This document shows, piece after piece, positions 107-6,537 of a stretch of 9,372 nucleotides of DNA. The notes beneath the pieces are model-generated. The model was not told the origin of the DNA and searched no databases. It saw only the letters and a program-made list of their open reading frames with translations. The DNA comes from Pseudomonadota bacterium (lineage in GTDB: Bacteria > Pseudomonadota > Gammaproteobacteria > GRL18): the NCBI GenBank assembly GCA_030632745.1, contig DAOVUE010000023.1, positions 1 to 9,372 on the forward strand, written 5' to 3'. How positions within the stretch are numbered: the first letter of the stretch is position 1; the number at the start of each line of letters is the position of its first letter. The translations under genes were made by a program, and so were the position numbers.

Positions 107-310
107 CTAGCGATTTTTGAGGTAGGTGCCCAGCAGTATCAGAGGTATCATTGATAAGATCAGTGCAGCTGAAAATATAATGATCTGAGGCAGATACCAG
201 ACCTCAGGCATTACCCACCAGCCGGTGATCAGCAGGCAGGCACCTGTGATAAAAAAAATACCTGCGGTAATAATCCCGTCTTTTATTGTTTTACAGCCTA
301 GTGCTCGCAT
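107..310 (-). CDS. Small two-helix membrane protein, downstream paralogue
   Basis: This is a 67-residue, very hydrophobic protein of unknown function. Two predicted membrane helices (about residues 12-33 and 39-62) are joined by a short loop containing Trp and Pro (GWWVMPEVWYLP), and the protein ends in a basic tail (LKNR). Residues 4-12 (LGCKTIKDG) match LGCQTMREG of the gene just upstream, and similarity continues through both helices (IFFITG against IFFIAG; PLILLGTYL against PIILVSTFL). The two are clearly tandem duplicates. The ATG lies inside the end of the upstream gene (13-base overlap), so translation is probably coupled; a weak GGA sits just before the start. It is the last gene of the cytochrome operon. 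A helper role in assembling or anchoring the membrane cytochromes is conceivable but only inferred. I know of no named family for it. Confidence 0.75.
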   Translation of the reverse strand: MRALGCKTIKDGIITAGIFFITGACLLITGWWVMPEVWYLPQIIIFSAALILSMIPLILLGTYLKNR

Positions 311-543
311 TTATCCATTCTGTCTTTTGCCTTAGGCAAAACTGAGAGTAAAAAAGTAGAAACTAATATTATCGGTGCAAGTAATAATAATATAAAACCT
401 GTAAAAACAACAACATGATTCAAATGCCATATTGCCGGTACGACGTTCGCTCCGGCAAGAATAACCAGCACACCGGCAATAAAGAATATCACTGTGGCAA
501 TCACGCCTTCGCGCATTGTCTGACAACCTAAAGATAATAACAT
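298..543 (-). CDS. Small two-helix membrane protein, upstream paralogue
   Basis: This is an 81-residue protein of unknown function, paralogous to the 67-residue protein encoded just downstream. Helices lie at about residues 13-34 and 42-68, joined by a loop with Pro and Trp (NVVPAIWHLNH). A charged C-terminal tail (PKAKDRMDKCEH), absent from the paralogue, carries a second Cys. The N-terminal LGCQT motif places a Cys right before the first helix. It does not look like a lipobox, because no hydrophobic segment precedes it. The gene starts 21 bases after the stop of the NapC/NirT-type cytochrome, with GGAG five bases before the ATG, and its end overlaps the next gene by 13 bases. Being translationally packed with a quinol-dehydrogenase-type cytochrome suggests a role in that membrane complex, but this is inference. 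A minimal haem- or quinone-binding subunit is an alternative. Confidence 0.78.
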   Translation of the reverse strand: MLLSLGCQTMREGVIATVIFFIAGVLVILAGANVVPAIWHLNHVVVFTGFILLLLAPIILVSTFLLSVLPKAKDRMDKCEH

Positions 544-564
544 AATACTCCAGTTCCTCCAGTT

Positions 565-1194
565 TTAGTGTTGCAGAATTTTCTGTGCTGAACCTTTTTC
601 CAGACCAAATTCTTCTTCTATCATGGCATTCCATTTATCCTGTTTAAAGACCTTTTCATCAGGTATTATACGATGCACCAGATTATAATGACATTCAATA
701 CAATTCTTGTCTTTAGCATCTTCCAGATGTATTTGTAAGGTATCAGGTCGATCACCATAAATTGCCTGTTTTACATGACAGCGTTTACAGGTGGCTGAAT
801 TCCTTTTTTTAAACCATTTGCGTGCACTAAAGGCTGCTTCAGGCAGATGTAATGCATTCACTACCGGATCATCATAATCCGGGCCAAATATTTGATTATA
901 TAAATCCTTACTGCCCATAACATGATCCCAGGTAGCAGACAGCACACCTTCCGAAACATGACAATCACCACAACTGGCCCGGACTCCGGATTTCGGTTTA
1001 TAATGTGTCGAATTTCGATACGGCTCTGCAGCCAGTTCCATGGAATGACAGGAAGTACAAAATTCTTCAGTACTGGTATAGTGGTCAAATTCGATTAAAA
1101 ACAGAATGAAACCAATACCGCATATACCGCCAAATATCAGAGCAAACAGCACATGCCGGGTAATAAAGGCGGGCAGCAGATCATTAATCTTCAT
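565..1194 (-). CDS. NapC/NirT-family membrane-anchored tetrahaem cytochrome c
   Basis: From the chosen start the protein has 209 residues. One N-terminal membrane helix (about 14-36) is followed by a periplasmic domain with four CXXCH sites at residues 46-50, 75-79, 136-140 and 165-169. This is the NapC/NirT/NrfH layout, and the size fits. The first site is followed by Met52 (CXXCHxM); in NrfH the Met at this place ligates haem 1. Family members oxidise membrane quinol and pass electrons to a periplasmic reductase. The likely partner is the HAO-like octahaem cytochrome encoded directly upstream, whose end overlaps this start by 11 bases. HAO-like proteins paired with NapC/NirT cytochromes are known from other bacteria, where the complex is proposed to act on nitrite or hydroxylamine. 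I preferred the ATG at 1194 to the one at 1212 because AAAGGAA lies seven bases before it, while the earlier ATG has only a badly spaced GGG. The family call is firm; the partner is inferred. Confidence 0.92.
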   Translation of the reverse strand: MKINDLLPAFITRHVLFALIFGGICGIGFILFLIEFDHYTSTEEFCTSCHSMELAAEPYRNSTHYKPKSGVRASCGDCHVSEGVLSATWDHVMGSKDLYNQIFGPDYDDPVVNALHLPEAAFSARKWFKKRNSATCKRCHVKQAIYGDRPDTLQIHLEDAKDKNCIECHYNLVHRIIPDEKVFKQDKWNAMIEEEFGLEKGSAQKILQH

Positions 1195-2638
1195 TACTGC
1201 TTCCTTTGCCATAACCCAGTATAGGGTTTGCCTTAGCAGGGTGATTTAACCACTGATGATGTTCTGATTCGTTGATATACTGCTTGATCAAGGCATCCCC
1301 TTTTTCAGCACCAGCCACTTTACGCACCTGAGGCAGGAACTTGCCGTAAAACAGACTGCCGACATCAGCCATGCCTTTCCAGGTATCGCTGGGACTACCC
1401 ATCGCCGCTCCATGACGGGCTCGGGTACCGCCTTTATGCCAGAGATTCCAGTAGGAAATTTCCACAGGCTCATCAAAGGGCAATGGTGTGAGTATATTTT
1501 CAGCATAAAGTGCCTGCATAATGTCTCGTGACGGCTTGCCGTATTTTTCATTATACAGCTTTACAACCTCATCAAACTGCTTCATAGCATTATTGGCAAA
1601 ATTTTTACTATGACACTCCAGGCAGGTTTTGGTCATTGCAGCTCGACGTCGTTTAGGTGAAGCAACCGCTTTAACCTTGCCCATAGTACCGTCCATTTTG
1701 GAAATGCTTTCACCTTTACGGGGGATTGGATCTGAGCTTGATAGTTCACGTTTTTCGCCATCTGCAAAGATAACCAGATATTGCTGTGTTGATACTGCCT
1801 CATTGAGGTTCCAGGAATCACGCATGCCCACATCGTGAGTTGATTTCATTTTACCGGCTGCACCCATATGGCAGCTGACACAGGTAGGGGCAGCAGAATA
1901 ATCTTTACCGGCAACCCAGCTGTCACTGTCCATATTCATATCAGCTTTGTGAGCCTCATACATCATACCGTGTTTGGATGTTTCATAGATTGACTTATCC
2001 GGAGAGTCAGGGCCTGAATGGCAATAGGTACAGGCTGCGGGTTCACGAGCCTGGGCTTTGGAAAACTGATGACGTCCATGGCAGGCAGAGCAGGAACCTT
2101 TAGAACCATCCGGATTGATACGGCCAATGCCGCTATTGGGCCAGGTGCTCGGATCAAGAGTGCCGTCGCCTCTTACTATAACTTTCGAACCATGACACTT
2201 TGCACAGCCGGCATCATTAATGGAAAGGCTGCCGAAGTGTTCAGCCAGTGCCGGCATGCGGTTGTTGATAATGGAAACTGCTTTGGTATGCACAGAGCCC
2301 TGCTGCTGCTTTAATTCTGCTGTATGACAACGACCGCAGTCTTTAGGCGATACAATAGTGGCAATAACACTGCCCTCATGTTCTATCGCATCAGCATCAT
2401 CTTCATAGGCCTGATGACAATCCAGACAATTGACATTAGCCTGAGCATGGGCACTGTTTTTCCATTGATGAGTCAGGCCGGCAGAAGATTTAGCATGACA
2501 GTCAACACAGGCCTTACCTTCTTCCAGGCCCCAGCTGGAGGGTTCCAGAGTTACTTTTGCTGCAAAAACTGAGTGACTGAGTAAAACAAAGCTACTGACG
2601 GTCAGTAAATGAAAAAAGGAATGTTTTGACCGATTCAT
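1184..2638 (-). CDS. HAO-like octahaem cytochrome c, probably reductive type
   Basis: The protein has 484 residues. A signal peptide is likely cut near VFA-AK (residue 26). Eight CXXCH sites lie at 44-48, 71-75, 101-105, 145-149, 183-187, 203-207, 253-257 and 339-343. The segment from haem 4 to haem 6 (CHGSK, LDPSTWPNSGIGRINPDGS, CSACHGRHQFS, CHSGPD) carries the conserved signature of the hydroxylamine oxidoreductase family, as do THDVG and RARHGAAM. In HAO a Tyr near the C-terminus cross-links haem 4 to make P460. Here the equivalent segment reads GSPSDTWKG (414-422) without Tyr, so oxidative HAO activity is unlikely. The distal GPDHP motif reads GPDSP (209-213), so a conserved His appears to be Ser. 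A periplasmic reductase of nitrite, hydroxylamine or a related N-oxide is the best guess, fed by the NapC/NirT cytochrome encoded next. The start at 2638 has GGAG with a six-base gap; a longer frame to 2713 would bury the signal peptide. Activity is unproven. Confidence 0.9.
   Translation of the reverse strand: MNRSKHSFFHLLTVSSFVLLSHSVFAAKVTLEPSSWGLEEGKACVDCHAKSSAGLTHQWKNSAHAQANVNCLDCHQAYEDDADAIEHEGSVIATIVSPKDCGRCHTAELKQQQGSVHTKAVSIINNRMPALAEHFGSLSINDAGCAKCHGSKVIVRGDGTLDPSTWPNSGIGRINPDGSKGSCSACHGRHQFSKAQAREPAACTYCHSGPDSPDKSIYETSKHGMMYEAHKADMNMDSDSWVAGKDYSAAPTCVSCHMGAAGKMKSTHDVGMRDSWNLNEAVSTQQYLVIFADGEKRELSSSDPIPRKGESISKMDGTMGKVKAVASPKRRRAAMTKTCLECHSKNFANNAMKQFDEVVKLYNEKYGKPSRDIMQALYAENILTPLPFDEPVEISYWNLWHKGGTRARHGAAMGSPSDTWKGMADVGSLFYGKFLPQVRKVAGAEKGDALIKQYINESEHHQWLNHPAKANPILGYGKGSSNED
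1201..1207 (-). promoter_or_regulatory. Ribosome binding site deciding the tetrahaem cytochrome start
   Basis: AAAGGAA on the minus strand lies seven bases before the ATG at 1194. It makes that ATG a better start than the in-frame ATG at 1212, which has only GGG two bases away. The site lies upstream of the HAO-like gene's stop codon, inside its last codons, which suggests coupled translation. Confidence 0.6.
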
Positions 2639-2644
2639 TTTATA

Positions 2645-2648
2645 CTCC
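2645..2648 (-). promoter_or_regulatory. Ribosome binding site deciding the HAO-like start
   Basis: GGAG on the minus strand, six bases before the ATG at 2638, is well placed. That start puts the signal peptide (MNRSKH, hydrophobic core, VFA cleavage motif) at the very N-terminus. The same frame remains open for 25 more codons upstream, but those would add a non-conserved, charged leader overlapping the cytochrome b gene. Confidence 0.6.
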
Positions 2649-2688
2649 ATAATGTTTTTTAAAAAATTGCTGTGAAAAATAACTGTGA

Positions 2689-2704
2689 AATAATAGCTAT
2701 TATT
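2689..2704. repeat. 16-base perfect palindrome at the end of the cytochrome b gene
   Basis: AATAATAGCTATTATT is a perfect palindrome spanning the TAA stop of the cytochrome b gene, about 50 bases before the HAO-like start. Next to it lie two near copies of CTGTGAAA (2671-2690). It could be an mRNA stem, an operator, or chance in AT-rich sequence. Confidence 0.25.
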
Positions 2705-3296
2705 CTTTTTCATATCCGTGAAGCATAGCCTTGAGATAACCCAGCCGTTCTTCGCTGGTTGTCAGAGCCAGATAGAGATGGACAATCAAAAAAGCCAGCA
2801 TGGCGAATGCGGCGGCGGTATGGACGAAGGCAATCATTCCCAGACTCCAGCTGCCTATGCCGATGTTATCCCAGTATGGATAATAAAGATAAAGCAGGCC
2901 GCTTATCCAGGTAACAGGTGTAATTGCGATGTGCAGGGACAGATAAGCCATACGCTGCATAGGATTGAGTTTTGACTGGCGCGTTTTGTGATGCGGGTGA
3001 CCGCCGCCAAGAAAGATATCAAGGGCATAATACTTCATCATAGCCATCAGTTTATTGGTACTGGAGGGGATATATTGTTTCCATTCACCAGTTACCATAT
3101 GCCAGAAAAGGGTAAAAACCAATAAGCCCATTAGCAGCCAGGATGTAATGATATGAATATTAACAGCCTGTTCAAAGCTAACAATATGATAAGTGCCGTG
3201 GATATTAAATCCGGTCAACAGCAGAATCAGTATCAGAACCGCCAAAGCCCAATGCCAGAAACGCTCAAAACCACTGTACATAATTACTCGGGACAT
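2700..3296 (-). CDS. Cytochrome b, four-helix b561/Ni-hydrogenase type
   Basis: This is a 198-residue integral membrane protein with four predicted helices at about 13-31, 46-68, 117-138 and 153-177. Candidate haem b ligands are His15 in helix 1, His48 and His66 in helix 2, His122 in helix 3, and His159 and His173 in helix 4. The pattern matches the dihaem cytochrome b subunits of formate dehydrogenase and hydrogenase (PF01292-like). Such subunits exchange electrons between the quinone pool and a periplasmic partner. The start codon overlaps the stop of the OTR-family octahaem gene by one base (TAATG), with AAGGAG nine bases upstream, so the two are almost certainly translated together and probably form one complex. 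The open frame extends upstream to 3401, but those 35 residues are out-of-frame OTR sequence and are rejected. The C-terminal tail (TTSEERLGYLKAML) resembles that of cytochrome b proteins encoded beside multihaem cytochromes. The direction of electron flow is not visible in sequence. Confidence 0.9.
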   Translation of the reverse strand: MSRVIMYSGFERFWHWALAVLILILLLTGFNIHGTYHIVSFEQAVNIHIITSWLLMGLLVFTLFWHMVTGEWKQYIPSSTNKLMAMMKYYALDIFLGGGHPHHKTRQSKLNPMQRMAYLSLHIAITPVTWISGLLYLYYPYWDNIGIGSWSLGMIAFVHTAAAFAMLAFLIVHLYLALTTSEERLGYLKAMLHGYEKE

Positions 3297-4915
3297 TATT
3301 GTTTTCTCCTTCTTTTTGCAAAGAAATAACGTATTAGCCCATGCAGAGAGACGCCGCCCAGTGTTCCAAAGACGGCAAGCCAGCCAATAATATCCAGCCA
3401 TTTGTTGTTATCTCTGCCGGGCAGATAAAAGTCAGTCAGATTGGCCAGTCGTCCCTCTTTACTATGACACTCTCCACAGGATAGAGATTGCTCCTTAGGG
3501 GCAACCATATGAGCCAGAGGCCAATGTAAGGTGGTTTCAATAAAACCGTATTCTCCACTATAGTTCGCCTGCGCTTCATCCATAGCGGCTTTGATTGCAC
3601 TATTCCAGTTATAGGATTTCCAGTAGGCTGTTTTTTCCTTACCAAATAGATGCAATAGAGTCAGAGTATTATTAACCTTGTCGTAGGGCTGTTTACCGCG
3701 CATAATTTTAAACGGCCAGATACGCGCATCAGGATCATCATAAGAACCAGAGAAGGTGTTTAATGCGACCACCTGGCCGGGATCAATTTTTTCATCCAGC
3801 TGCTTGTATCTTATATTGCCTGACAGCCAGTCATATTCAGGTACTAAATCCTGTCCCCAGGTGAAGCTGCCTTTTTTAGTAAAATAGGTCAGTTGACCCT
3901 TGTCATTTTTCATTTTAATCAGCTTGCCATCAGCATCTTTTTTCCCTGCTGTAGACCAGTCCCACCACATTTTAGTGGCAACACCACCGCGTGCATAGGT
4001 AGGGATATGACAGGTGACGCAAGCGACTTTGTCGGTATGATCATTAATTTTATTATTAATGGTTTCAGGATGAGGTGTCATACCATGACAGGATTCACAG
4101 CTTGCGCGGCTGTGATCATCACGACCGGGTATGTCAATACCATGGGTGTCCTTGGCTGTAATATTAAAACGACTGCCTTTGATATCATGGCCATCGGTGC
4201 TATGGCATTCAGTGCAGGTAAAATTAAGTCCATCGACTCCCATATGGACATCCAGCTGTTTGTCCGGATTAGTCATAGATGAATCCAGATCACCATGCTT
4301 GACTCCGTCACCACCACCGCCATAGAAGTGGCAGGCGCCACAGTTTTCGCGTCGTGGTGGTCCGACATTTTGTGCAATATGAGAGAGATCAGGTGCTTTC
4401 CATATTTTTTTACTGCCTTTGGGAAAGGCTTTATCTTTATAGGTAGGATGCCCTGCTGCTGTGGGAAATTTTTTGTAGGTATCTGTAGTATCGTGGCACA
4501 CCAGACAATCTACATTTTCCTGTGAAGTGAAGTCAAAATCCTTGTCTTTCCAGCCATAACCGATATGACAACTGGTACAACGGGCATAATTTTTATTAAT
4601 GGCCAGGCAATAATTATTGATAATTGATTTTTTACCGACTTCCTGACCCGTATCAGGGTTGGTAAAAGTCCAGTTCCAATGCTTGGTTTTATGTAATTGT
4701 TTACTGGCTTCTGTGTGACAGCTGAGACAGGCCTTAGTGACATCAGGCCCTGTGGCAAATTGTTCTTGCAGAATTTCGAATTTAGAATGATCAGCCGTTG
4801 AGGATGTTGTTTTTTCAGCTTCAACATCTGCATAGCTGTTTGAACAGGCGATAAACAGGGCGGAATATAATATTCCAGACGCTAGCGCACTGTTTTTCAG
4901 TTTAGAGAAAAACAT
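3296..4915 (-). CDS. otr: Octahaem cytochrome c of the tetrathionate reductase (OTR) family
   Basis: The protein has 539 residues. A signal peptide (cut likely at SYA-D, residue 29) precedes eight CXXCH sites at 63-67, 113-117, 137-141, 192-196, 234-238, 273-277, 299-303 and 480-484. A C-terminal membrane helix (about 506-530) is followed by a basic tail (AKRRRKQ), which would leave the haem domain in the periplasm. KACLSCHTEA, the NNYC...CTSCH block, and the Gly-rich CGACHFYGGGGDGVKHGDLD are family hallmarks. The Shewanella homologue reduces tetrathionate and also nitrite and hydroxylamine in vitro. I recall its active-site haem 2 being lysine-ligated, with a modified non-haem Cys nearby. 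Cys103 (NNYC) and Lys206 (VKHGD) are candidates for these, without a structural alignment. The cytochrome b gene overlaps the end by one base and is the likely quinone partner. The ATG at 4915 has GGGGG eight bases upstream; GTG at 4930 is an alternative. The family call is firm; the physiological substrate is unknown. Confidence 0.92.
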   Translation of the reverse strand: MFFSKLKNSALASGILYSALFIACSNSYADVEAEKTTSSTADHSKFEILQEQFATGPDVTKACLSCHTEASKQLHKTKHWNWTFTNPDTGQEVGKKSIINNYCLAINKNYARCTSCHIGYGWKDKDFDFTSQENVDCLVCHDTTDTYKKFPTAAGHPTYKDKAFPKGSKKIWKAPDLSHIAQNVGPPRRENCGACHFYGGGGDGVKHGDLDSSMTNPDKQLDVHMGVDGLNFTCTECHSTDGHDIKGSRFNITAKDTHGIDIPGRDDHSRASCESCHGMTPHPETINNKINDHTDKVACVTCHIPTYARGGVATKMWWDWSTAGKKDADGKLIKMKNDKGQLTYFTKKGSFTWGQDLVPEYDWLSGNIRYKQLDEKIDPGQVVALNTFSGSYDDPDARIWPFKIMRGKQPYDKVNNTLTLLHLFGKEKTAYWKSYNWNSAIKAAMDEAQANYSGEYGFIETTLHWPLAHMVAPKEQSLSCGECHSKEGRLANLTDFYLPGRDNNKWLDIIGWLAVFGTLGGVSLHGLIRYFFAKRRRKQ

Positions 4916-4950
4916 GATTGGAACCCCCACTCAAGAATTTATTTTATAAA

Positions 4951-4998
4951 CAGTAGCAACAGGTGGATTAGAGTGACCAATCTACCTGGTTGCTACTG
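4951..4998 (-). terminator. Long intergenic hairpin, possible attenuator or processing stem
   Basis: Arms CAGTAGCAAC (4951-4960) and GTTGCTACTG (4989-4998) pair perfectly. After a one-base bulge the stem continues through AGGTGGATT against AATCTACCT with one mismatch, leaving a loop of about nine bases. Read on the minus strand, the stem is followed by TTTATAAAATAAATT, a broken T tract. It lies between the pentahaem and OTR genes, 36 bases before the OTR start. It may be a leaky terminator that lowers expression of the downstream genes, or a stabilising stem at an mRNA processing site. A full terminator would leave the downstream genes without an obvious promoter. Confidence 0.5.
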
Positions 4999-5027
4999 CT
5001 CGTATAAAAAGTACTACAAAGTAGCTT

Positions 5028-6353
5028 CTATAGAGCGTTTTCAGATGTCGATATCAGCTTGGGTGCTGTCACATCTGCAGGGATTTTATCACCAAATTTC
5101 TTGACCAGTCCGGGCCATAAAAGATTATAGTAGAGTTCAGCACGAACCAGTACAATATCCTTAGCAGGAATGTCATAGAACAGCTCACGTGTTTCAAAGG
5201 CTTTTAAACGATTATCAGCGCCCTGACCTTTAGCTGTTGGCGGTGCTGTAGGCTTACCTTTATCATCGACTAATACCATATGCATATAAGCCTGTTTATC
5301 AGTCTTGCCCGGATGACCCTTGGCATTTTCCCAAACCACATTGCCAGTTTTATCATAAGCCATCACCTTCATGTGCAGATTTCTAAAAGGAGCTCCAGTA
5401 GGCATGGTATGCGGTTGTTTATTTTGTATAGTAATGACTGATTTGATGGTATTACCGTCTTTTTTACTCTCCATAGAGAACACAACGGAGCGCTGCAGCA
5501 TCGGTAAACTATGCCCGCCACCCATACTATGATCCGATTTACTCCCGGTAGTAGGCATATGACAGGAGAGACAATCTGCCTTAGCCTGACTCTCAATATA
5601 TTCATCACCGGTTGCACACAGAGGCACACCATGAGCATTATTTCTTTTATCATGACAACCCATACAGGCATCTGAGGTTCTTAATTGCTTTGGATTGCTT
5701 TCCATCGGCAGAGCAGGAATATCTTTTCCATCTACTGTGACGGGCTTACCTAAATGCGGATTGGGTTTTTTATCATCATCACCATCAGTGAAACCAAATT
5801 CATCGCCCATGGCAGTTAAAGCATTTAATAGATGATTGGAGTTACGGCCGGTACCCTGGATTTTATCAGTATATTCATAAGCCTTTATACCCAGATTCAG
5901 TTTGCCGTTTTTTCCATCAATACCGTTATACTTTTTCAGGGTATGACAGGCAATACAGTTAACACCTTCTGCATAAGCGGGTTTGGAGTCCAGTTTGGTG
6001 ACCTTATCTTTAGCTGCATTGGGAGCATGACATTGCAAACACACAGGGTATTTGCCATTTTTCATTGTTACGCCTTCTTTACCCGGATCACCAACGACTT
6101 TGCGATAAAATGTACCATGAATAGGGTCATTAAATGCTGTGCTATTGGCATGCATAGAACCCTTCCATTGTTTGTAGGTTTCTTTATGACAGGTTTTACA
6201 TACAGTGGCTGAAACATGATGAATGGAGCCATCAGCCTGTGAAGAGTCATTGGCTTTTGTATTAGCGAATGCCGAATTAACGATAAAGAGTGAGCCCAAT
6301 AGACCGGCAGAGATGCCGGAAAGAATGACAGGTATTTTTTTTATTACAGACAT
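5028..6353 (-). CDS. Exported pentahaem cytochrome c, cytochrome c554-like
   Basis: This 441-residue protein has a signal peptide cut probably at AFA-N (residue 30). Five CXXCH sites lie at 52-56, 105-109, 133-137, 230-234 and 261-265, in a region resembling the cytochrome c554/c-prime multihaem fold (PF13435-like). A haem-free C-terminal part (about 285-430) looks beta-rich. Its NKQPHTMPTGAPFRNLHMKV motif recalls a segment seen in other multihaem cytochromes (N..GH..PTG.P.R). An extra Cys, Cys246, in HGVPLCATGDEY sits between haems 4 and 5 and is not part of a CXXCH site; it could be a haem ligand or redox residue. It is the first gene of the operon, with AGGGG six bases before the ATG. It is probably a periplasmic electron carrier for the octahaem proteins, or an enzyme in its own right. 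The haem content is certain from the motifs; the role is inferred and I do not recognise a characterised orthologue. Confidence 0.88.
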   Translation of the reverse strand: MSVIKKIPVILSGISAGLLGSLFIVNSAFANTKANDSSQADGSIHHVSATVCKTCHKETYKQWKGSMHANSTAFNDPIHGTFYRKVVGDPGKEGVTMKNGKYPVCLQCHAPNAAKDKVTKLDSKPAYAEGVNCIACHTLKKYNGIDGKNGKLNLGIKAYEYTDKIQGTGRNSNHLLNALTAMGDEFGFTDGDDDKKPNPHLGKPVTVDGKDIPALPMESNPKQLRTSDACMGCHDKRNNAHGVPLCATGDEYIESQAKADCLSCHMPTTGSKSDHSMGGGHSLPMLQRSVVFSMESKKDGNTIKSVITIQNKQPHTMPTGAPFRNLHMKVMAYDKTGNVVWENAKGHPGKTDKQAYMHMVLVDDKGKPTAPPTAKGQGADNRLKAFETRELFYDIPAKDIVLVRAELYYNLLWPGLVKKFGDKIPADVTAPKLISTSENAL

Positions 6354-6523: not shown

Positions 6524-6537
6524 TTGATATTTTTCAA
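6524..6537. promoter_or_regulatory. Candidate FNR/CRP-family operator
   Basis: TTGATATTTTTCAA matches the FNR consensus TTGAT-N4-ATCAA in nine of ten specified positions, and the flanking bases extend the symmetry to ATTGA...TCAAT. Its centre is about 177 bases upstream of the pentahaem start and 131 bases upstream of polA. Control by an oxygen-sensing or NO-sensing FNR-type regulator would suit an anaerobic respiratory operon. Such matches also arise by chance in AT-rich DNA, and no convincing -10 is seen at the ideal spacing. Confidence 0.35.

What the first reader, a model, noticed from the sequence alone, without database searches (positions are those of the whole stretch)
107..6353. One operon with 25 haem c sites joining two octahaem families
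Counting CXXCH motifs gives 5, 8, 8 and 4 in four consecutive genes, plus a b-type cytochrome. An OTR-family protein with its own cytochrome b and an HAO-like protein with its own NapC/NirT partner sit in one co-oriented, overlapping set of genes. Each octahaem enzyme thus seems to have its own quinone link. The arrangement suggests a composite periplasmic system that could couple sulfur (tetrathionate) and nitrogen (nitrite or hydroxylamine) reduction, or use the two enzymes in sequence on one N-oxide pathway. I do not know of a described system with this exact gene set.
Basis: partly seen in the sequence, partly recalled or inferred. Interest (0 to 1): 0.75.

Follow-up and report, generated by a model that had tools for sequence, protein, structure and literature searches.

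The report
Modular double-octahaem cytochrome operon
Seven neighbouring genes with 25 haem-binding sites form a block, whose main genes recur side by side in three different orders in several groups of predicted sulfur-oxidising bacteria, and which would likely carry respiratory electrons to two eight-haem proteins, at least one of them predicted to reduce nitrite or tetrathionate.

Summary
In detail: seven minus-strand genes (107-6353) with 5+8+8+4 = 25 in-frame CXXCH sites plus a b-type cytochrome. In 34 related loci the HAO-like gene has NapC beside it in 33 and a pentahaem c552 in 32 (misses are contig ends), and OTR with cytochrome b in 10, in three gene orders with the window's genus counted. 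OTR is optional, absent or decayed in sister loci: a c552/HAO-like/NapC core plus an OTR/cytochrome-b module, not a fixed pair. OTR keeps its Lys ligand and has a hydrophobic C-terminal tail. The HAO-like protein lacks the HAO cross-link Tyr and has Ser for the distal His in 42 of 42 members, against His in 55 of 55 of a sister group. Likely function: quinol-fed periplasmic reduction of nitrite, hydroxylamine or tetrathionate; substrates untested. NapA occurs in 16 of 16 operon-linked genomes and NrfA over cut-off in 0 of 54, but 13 of the 16 also carry cd1-type proteins. A new variant of known kinds.

The parts
5028..6353 (-). pentahaem c552-type cytochrome (5 CXXCH, signal-like N-terminus), first gene of the block
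   Evidence: Solved relative 5ze8, T. tepidum c552, 535 bits; PF13435; near the HAO-like gene in 32 of 34 related loci
3296..4930 (-). OTR-family octahaem cytochrome (8 CXXCH) with hydrophobic C-terminal tail; likely start near 4915
   Evidence: TIGR04315 638 bits; 1sp3 395 bits; Lys153 equivalent kept; tail with H[GAS]xxR in 41 of 42 rows
2700..3296 (-). b-type cytochrome, presumed quinone-side partner of OTR; likely start overlaps the OTR stop by one base
   Evidence: PF01292; four His kept in 59 of 59 aligned homologues; next to OTR in 30 of 30 loci
1184..2638 (-). HAO-like octahaem cytochrome (8 CXXCH), likely start 2638; no cross-link Tyr, Ser in place of the distal His
565..1194 (-). NapC/NirT-family tetrahaem cytochrome (4 CXXCH), presumed quinol dehydrogenase for the HAO-like protein
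   Evidence: PF03264 125 bits; next to the HAO-like gene in 33 of 34 loci
298..543 (-). 81-aa hydrophobic protein, probably two membrane helices, N-terminal Cys and C-terminal CxH
   Evidence: No Pfam family over cut-off and no PHROGs family; a relative of this or the 67-aa protein in 14 of 34 loci; sequences
107..310 (-). 67-aa hydrophobic protein, probably two membrane helices, relative of the 81-aa one

Best explanation
The block encodes 25 haem c sites in a recurring core (pentahaem c552, HAO-like octahaem protein, NapC-type cytochrome, here with two small predicted membrane proteins) into which an OTR/cytochrome-b pair is built, and it would likely work as a quinol-fed periplasmic reduction system in which the OTR reduces nitrite, hydroxylamine or tetrathionate. 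Shown here: gene content, families, recurrence in three gene orders, scattered absence and decay of the OTR pair, and active-site residues kept (OTR Lys) or changed (HAO-like). Inferred: cytochrome b feeds OTR and NapC feeds the HAO-like protein from the quinone pool; c552 is the periplasmic carrier that joins them, as the small tetrahaem cytochrome STC joins CymA (a NapC-family protein, recalled) to OTR in Shewanella; the HAO-like protein runs in the reducing direction or only relays electrons. Untested: every substrate, the direction of flow, the quinone links and co-transcription.
For: Same main genes in three orders: c552-OTR-cytb-HAO-NapC; divergent (cytb-OTR-c552)(HAO-NapC); c552-HAO-NapC-small protein-OTR-cytb. 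OTR beside cytochrome b in 30 of 30 and 29 of 30 loci. The 16 operon OTRs group with one unlinked row (support 89/87): 2 label changes on the tree against 13.1 when shuffled. OTR Lys153 equivalent kept in 42 of 42 rows; at 16 sites where the operon OTRs differ from 24 unlinked ones, Shewanella OTR has the operon residue at 8 and the unlinked one at 1. No Tyr in the cross-link column of the HAO-like protein; that absence is given in print as a mark separating N-oxide-reducing from N-oxide-oxidising members (PMC3701875, passages). NapA in 16 of 16 linked genomes, 3 of them as fragments, against 16 of 24 other core carriers, Fisher p 0.013, kinship not corrected for. NrfA over its (strict) cut-off in 0 of 54. 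DsrA in 49 of 54. Published: an OTR of Beggiatoaceae reduced nitrite and tetrathionate in vitro (PMC6449678, passages); OTR interacts with STC and reduces nitrite, hydroxylamine and tetrathionate in Shewanella (PMC4484225, passages).
Against: 13 of 16 linked genomes also carry cytochrome cd1-type proteins (PF02239), so another nitrite sink probably exists. 8 of 24 other core carriers have no NapA hit above 161 bits, several of them purple sulfur phototrophs, so the core is not tied to nitrate respiration. The HAO-like protein has changed the distal His and three other sites nearly fixed in its sister group, so it may not act on N-oxides at all. Strict monophyly of the operon OTRs is rejected (p-AU 0.00026) because one Thiodiazotropha OTR outside an operon falls inside. 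OTR is the minority partner: 10 of 34 loci. A Fnr-like site upstream of c552 in the window is not conserved in relatives.
Confidence: 0.5

Rival explanations
1. The two octahaem proteins would act in series on one N-oxide path: the HAO-like protein with NapC reduces nitrite to hydroxylamine (reverse-HURM) and OTR with cytochrome b reduces hydroxylamine to ammonium, replacing NrfA.
For: NapA in 16 of 16 linked genomes and NrfA over cut-off in 0 of 54. OTR can reduce hydroxylamine (PMC4484225, passages). Reverse-HURM is proposed as HaoA plus a NapC-family protein, without the Tyr (PMC3701875, passages). A related NapC/HAO-like pair (37.7% identity) lies near norR and a nitric-oxide reductase gene on a Desulfosarcina plasmid.
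Against: Distal His replaced by Ser in 42 of 42 core members; the core persists where OTR is absent or decayed; cd1-type proteins in 13 of 16 linked genomes. Hcp was not searched.
Confidence: 0.25
2. The core would serve sulfur chemistry: the HAO-like protein acts on a sulfur oxyanion or polysulfide, OTR works as tetrathionate reductase, and c552 links them, in sulfur-oxidising hosts.
For: Carriers are mostly dsrA-bearing (DsrA in 49 of the 54 genomes searched) and include Thiocapsa, Halochromatium and Thiodiazotropha. Sites fixed in the sister group are changed in the HAO-like protein. c552 has been suggested to act in sulfur metabolism (PMC11976967, passage citing Chen 2019). The BOGUAY_2386 OTR was more active with tetrathionate than with nitrite, and has thiosulfate/tetrathionate reductase genes downstream (PMC6449678, passages). 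An otr gene of lucinid symbionts lies near a soxY gene (PMC11237559, passages; which OTR that is was not checked).
Against: No sulfur-oxyanion site is recognised in the HAO-like protein; NapA is present in all 16 linked genomes; OTR-type enzymes are promiscuous, so activity in vitro shows little. The 54 genomes include non-carriers of the same order that also have DsrA, so DsrA does not single out carriers.
Confidence: 0.25
3. An oxidising hydroxylamine:quinone module as in nitrifiers, with c552 in the place of c554.
For: c552 carries the c554-type domain PF13435 and the NapC-family protein stands where CycB does; the layout of carrier, octahaem protein and NapC-family protein is HURM-like (HURM as described in PMC3701875, passages).
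Against: Cross-link Tyr absent (W in 12 of 16, gap in 4 of 16); distal His absent. haoB and amo were not looked for.
Confidence: 0.05
4. Chance neighbours: two unrelated units that happen to touch.
For: OTR is common in these genomes (27 of 30) and most OTRs found are not linked to an HAO-like gene.
Against: Same genes adjacent in 10 of 34 loci, in 6 of 24 genomes of the window's order and in one genome of another family, G206, in three orders; 0 of 46 loci of the sister HAO group show OTR within the held flanks.
Confidence: 0.03

Closest known systems
Octahaem tetrathionate reductase (OTR, TIGR04315; Shewanella oneidensis 1sp3)
   Same: 8 CXXCH, Lys153 equivalent kept, 395 bits to 1sp3
   Different: Hydrophobic C-terminal tail with H[GAS]xxR (41 of 42 rows) and a cytochrome b next door; the 1sp3 chain has only 22 residues beyond the last matched one
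Octahaem cytochrome IhOCC of Ignicoccus hospitalis (4qo5; the name IhOCC is recalled)
   Different: Val where this family has Ser; NapC and c552 neighbours; bacterial
Hydroxylamine oxidoreductase (HAO) and HURM of nitrifiers; reverse-HURM of Nautilia (HaoA plus CycB/NapC)
   Same: Octahaem protein with NapC-family partner and a protein with the c554-type domain
   Different: No cross-link Tyr, no distal His, pentahaem rather than tetrahaem carrier, OTR/cytochrome b added
Thermochromatium tepidum pentahaem c552 (5ze8)
   Same: 535 bits over about 400 residues
   Different: No clear role assigned in print (PMC11976967, passage); here near the HAO-like gene in 32 of 34 loci. Whether T. tepidum has the HAO-like gene was not tested
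Group B HAO-like octahaem proteins (Thiomargarita, Thiothrix, Vibrio, Geobacter and others)
   Same: 38-47% identical; the commonest haem spacings agree up to haem 7
   Different: Distal His kept in 55 of 55; no OTR and no c552 above 20 bits in the held flanks of 46 loci

Membership tests
OTR family | TIGR04315 over its cut-off | tested here: met
   638 bits against 375
OTR family | Eight CXXCH haems and the Lys153 ligand (role of Lys153 recalled) | tested here: met
   8 CXXCH; Lys in 16 of 16 linked and 26 of 26 unlinked rows
OTR family | Reduction of tetrathionate, nitrite or hydroxylamine | not testable with these tools
   No assay possible
HAO (hydroxylamine-oxidising) | Tyr cross-linked to the catalytic haem | tested here: not met
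   Column of R. pomeroyi HAO Tyr489, taken as Nitrosomonas Tyr467 (number recalled) by counting on from printed pieces: W 12 of 16, gap 4 of 16, no Tyr
HAO (hydroxylamine-oxidising) | Distal Asp-His pair (recalled as catalytic) | tested here: not met
   Ser at the His site in 42 of 42; Asp kept in 12 of 16, Glu in 4 of 16
HAO fold family | Octahaem HAO fold | tested here: met
Reverse-HURM (HaoA + CycB/NapC) | HAO-like protein without the Tyr, with a NapC-family protein | tested here: met
Reverse-HURM (HaoA + CycB/NapC) | Nitrite reduction to hydroxylamine | not testable with these tools
   No assay possible
Reverse-HURM (HaoA + CycB/NapC) | Hcp hydroxylamine reductase in the genome | not tested
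NapC/NirT family | PF03264, four haems, one N-terminal membrane helix | tested here: met
   125 bits, 4 CXXCH, one hydrophobic stretch, residues 6-38; the curated TIGR02161 model scores 86 of 310 bits, so the named subfamily is not reached
Pentahaem c552 of T. tepidum type | Five haems and similarity to 5ze8 | tested here: met
   535 bits, 5 CXXCH
ExtKL | NF040886 over its cut-off | tested here: not met
   67 bits against 250
NrfA | PF02335 over its cut-off (HAO-like protein) | tested here: not met
   17.5 bits against 24.1

The most novel reading that the evidence does not exclude
The core is an undescribed quinone-linked respiratory module of sulfur bacteria: its octahaem protein descends from HAO-type enzymes but has exchanged the N-oxide pocket (Ser for His, Val for His, Asn for Arg relative to its sister group) for a new substrate, perhaps a sulfur oxyanion, or for pure electron relay, and it recruits a membrane-anchored OTR as an exchangeable terminal reductase.
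Probability: 0.3. Interest if true: 0.75.

Novelty: new variant of a known kind. Interest (0 to 1): 0.52.

Why it matters
T. tepidum c552 has no assigned role in the passage I read, OTR's role outside the test tube is argued over, and HAO-like proteins are readily named hydroxylamine dehydrogenase (two source names). A recurring block that ties all three to specified membrane partners gives a concrete set for expression, and cultured hosts such as Thiocapsa or Halochromatium carry the core. It would also bear on how seep and vent symbionts without canonical NrfA handle nitrite and tetrathionate. If the changed pocket has a new substrate, that naming is misleading.

Tried and rejected
Chance clustering of CXXCH: rejected. 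First AlphaFold model from 16 close rows: mean pLDDT 52.3, discarded; a 71-row alignment gave 87.5. Fnr site: one site with one mismatch in the window, not conserved, not used. Rfam: no match at gathering score. Flanking genes as clues: of 10 flanking proteins from 7 loci, 8 had Pfam families (methyltransferase, polyketide cyclase, SCO1/ZnuA, two NiFe hydrogenase subunits, carbonic anhydrase, Crp-type regulator, GGDEF protein); no family was shared between loci. My Fisher test used a wrong count (17 linked genomes); the corrected one is. Strict clade of operon OTRs: rejected. Literature: ten searches; in their listings, and in the passages read from 13 papers, none describes OTR and an HAO-like gene in one operon. 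Deferribacter autotrophicus has both genes apart (PMC6896113, passages), and Thermosulfurimonas and Dissulfuribacter have OTR and HaoA homologues under separate locus tags (PMC5276818, passages). No paper was read whole. The library holds only openly licensed papers, so this is weak evidence of novelty.

Limits of the counts. The 24 'other core carriers' in the NapA test include G014, G035 and G046, where a contig end hides part of the neighbourhood, and G014's NapA is a 329-bit fragment; G001 (core cut by a contig end) was left out. In one search the unlinked rows L123 and L130 were set aside for the site comparison (24 of 26 used). Genomes are not independent. G400 looks like the same genome as G031 (same contig number, nearly the same places). 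PF02239 also covers NirF- and NirN-like proteins (recalled), so 13 of 16 counts cd1-type proteins, not proven NirS.
Full report
What is there. The window holds seven co-oriented minus-strand genes between 107 and 6353: a pentahaem cytochrome, an OTR-family octahaem protein, a b-type cytochrome, an HAO-like octahaem protein, a NapC/NirT-family cytochrome and two small hydrophobic proteins. CXXCH counts are 5, 8, 8 and 4 in the four c-type genes, far above chance (28 pattern matches against 0.96 expected). Upstream and divergent lies what looks like polA (6662 onward; named by me from its sequence, no family call).

Recurrence. An alignment of 16 HAO-like proteins (A1) was used for the one genome-contig scan; 80 loci were kept of 559 confirmed. 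In the 34 nearer ones (L008-L041, 55% identity or more) NapC is beside the HAO-like gene in 33, c552 near it in 32, and OTR with cytochrome b in 10; the misses of NapC (L021) and c552 (L008, L033) are contig ends. In the 46 more distant ones (L042-L087) no OTR is seen in the held flanks. In the 24 genomes held of the window's order, the core is seen in 11, with OTR/cytochrome b inside the block in 6 (G000, G010, G011, G012, G013, G016), without it in 3 (G005, G007, G008), and cut by contig ends in 2 (G001, G014). In an even draw of 369 Gammaproteobacteria, 31 have an OTR relative at E 1e-60 or better. Of the 27 of these outside the window's order, 2 have a window-type HAO-like gene (over 890 bits) and both have OTR adjacent: G206, whose OTR reading frame looks broken, and G400, probably the same genome as G031. 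The 338 genomes without an OTR hit were not searched for the HAO-like gene.

Three gene orders and an optional module. Order I is c552-OTR-cytb-HAO-NapC (window's genus, L019, G206). Order II has cytb-OTR-c552 facing away from HAO-NapC (L011-L013 and L015-L018, among them Thiodiazotropha, a Ctena symbiont and a Lamellibrachia symbiont). Order III is c552-HAO-NapC-small protein-OTR-cytb (G016, L020, L026). On the OTR tree (43 rows) the 16 operon OTRs and one unlinked Thiodiazotropha OTR form one group (89/87); holding the 16 alone as a clade is rejected (p-AU 0.00026). At 16 sites that separate the operon OTRs from 24 unlinked ones, Shewanella OTR agrees with the operon type at 8 and with the other type at 1. 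On the HAO tree (44 rows) loci without OTR lie next to loci with it: L010 with L103, L009 with L187, L014 with L011. L009 keeps fragments of OTR and of cytochrome b in several frames where the two genes would be, and L014 keeps a cytochrome b remnant with a stop. The simplest reading is repeated loss of OTR/cytochrome b from a lasting core; independent gains are not excluded.

A remodelled octahaem protein. Aligned with Ruegeria HAO, the cross-link Tyr column is W (12) or a gap (4) in the 16 A1 rows, and W (40), H (3) or Q (3) in 46 group B rows. Four sites separate 42 window-type proteins from 55 group B proteins: Val141 (40 of 42) for His (53 of 55), Ser237 (42) for His (55), Asp239 (42) for Gln (54) and Asn304 (41) for Arg (55). 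Ser237 aligns with the distal His of HAO. The window's own genome also carries a group B paralogue (C395, 51% identity in its best stretch) with the His kept. This is the result that most weakens a plain nitrite or hydroxylamine role for the core protein. The Ignicoccus protein also lacks that His, and published work treats it as a HAO-family member, so the loss does not by itself exclude such activity (its activities were not looked up here).

Metabolic setting. Among 54 genomes (24 of the order, 30 behind loci) NrfA is over its cut-off in 0, with two weaker relatives at about 155 bits and the rest at 24 bits or less. NapA is over cut-off in 39 of 54, and present in all 16 operon-linked genomes if the fragments in G000, G011 and G034 are counted, against 16 of 24 other core carriers (p 0.013). 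NarG is over cut-off in 9 of 54, cytochrome cd1-type proteins are found in 35 of 54 and in 13 of the 16 linked genomes, and DsrA in 49 of 54, 45 of them over cut-off. So the hosts are predicted sulfur oxidisers, mostly with a periplasmic nitrate reductase, without canonical NrfA but often with another candidate nitrite reductase. This fits nitrite as a substrate but does not require it; genomes of the order without the core look alike on these markers.

Mechanism. The pairing data support two membrane entries, cytochrome b for OTR and NapC for the HAO-like protein. c552 stands near the HAO-like gene in every locus of the 34 where the contig allows it to be seen, and next to OTR in orders I and II, so it is the natural carrier between them. 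A published parallel is Shewanella, where CymA passes electrons to a small tetrahaem cytochrome, which interacts with OTR (PMC4484225, passages). I commit to a quinol-fed reducing system with OTR as the main terminal reductase for nitrite, hydroxylamine or tetrathionate; these are activities published for OTR proteins (PMC4484225, PMC6449678, passages). The role of the HAO-like protein is left between second reductase and relay.

Relation to the known. Parts and partial layouts are known: OTR, HAO-like proteins, NapC-family partners, and the reverse-HURM proposed for Nautilia (PMC3701875, passages). Genomes with OTR and HAO-like genes apart have been described (PMC6896113, PMC5276818, passages). 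What I did not find in the ten searches listed is the joint block; the OTR/cytochrome-b pairing, the Ser-for-His subfamily and the small CxH proteins were not met in the passages read, but only the joint block and the OTR with cytochrome b561 were searched for by name. I rate it a new variant of a known kind.

Noticed in passing
298-543 and 107-310; also L101, L012, L009, L108, L113, L187: Small hydrophobic proteins with an N-terminal C-x-x-[MI]-[RK]-x-[GA] motif in most; most long forms end in C-x-H at the very C-terminus (C-x-R in L020 and L132). In these six loci a further member lies on the strand opposite to NapC. No Pfam family over cut-off, no PHROGs family.
   Followed up: partly
L121 (G000 C94) and L122 (G000 C15, 5396-8215): The same genome has a second OTR with its own cytochrome b, and a long OTR-like protein (939-951 aa depending on the start) with 9 CXXCH.
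   Followed up: partly
L120 (G000 C395): Group B HAO-like paralogue with the distal His kept, in the window's own genome.
   Followed up: partly
upstream of c552 in L107, L108, L112, L113, L114, L119: Conserved block with a near-palindrome of the AAATAAAT...ATTTATTT kind; not clear in the window or in L111.
   Followed up: no
6524-6537: Fnr-like site, one mismatch, 184 bases before the c552 start; not conserved in relatives.
   Followed up: partly
L111 6316-7008: Crp/Fnr-type regulator divergent from the c552 gene in the nearest relative G010.
   Followed up: partly
L154 (Desulfosarcina ovata plasmid) and L155 (Desulfobaculum bizertense plasmid): NapC plus HAO-like gene pairs on plasmids; in L154 near norR and a nitric-oxide reductase gene.
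   Followed up: partly
L011 12595-15470: NiFe hydrogenase small and large subunit genes follow the NapC/small-protein end of the block in Thiodiazotropha endoloripes.
   Followed up: no
OTR rows among L094-L152 marked unlinked: A second gammaproteobacterial OTR group, also beside cytochrome b, differs from Shewanella OTR at sites that the operon OTRs keep, such as Arg73, Ser76 and Trp280.
   Followed up: partly
L184 (G206): A distant genome with the block in order I whose OTR frame looks broken into two overlapping pieces; assembly error or decay cannot be told apart.
   Followed up: no
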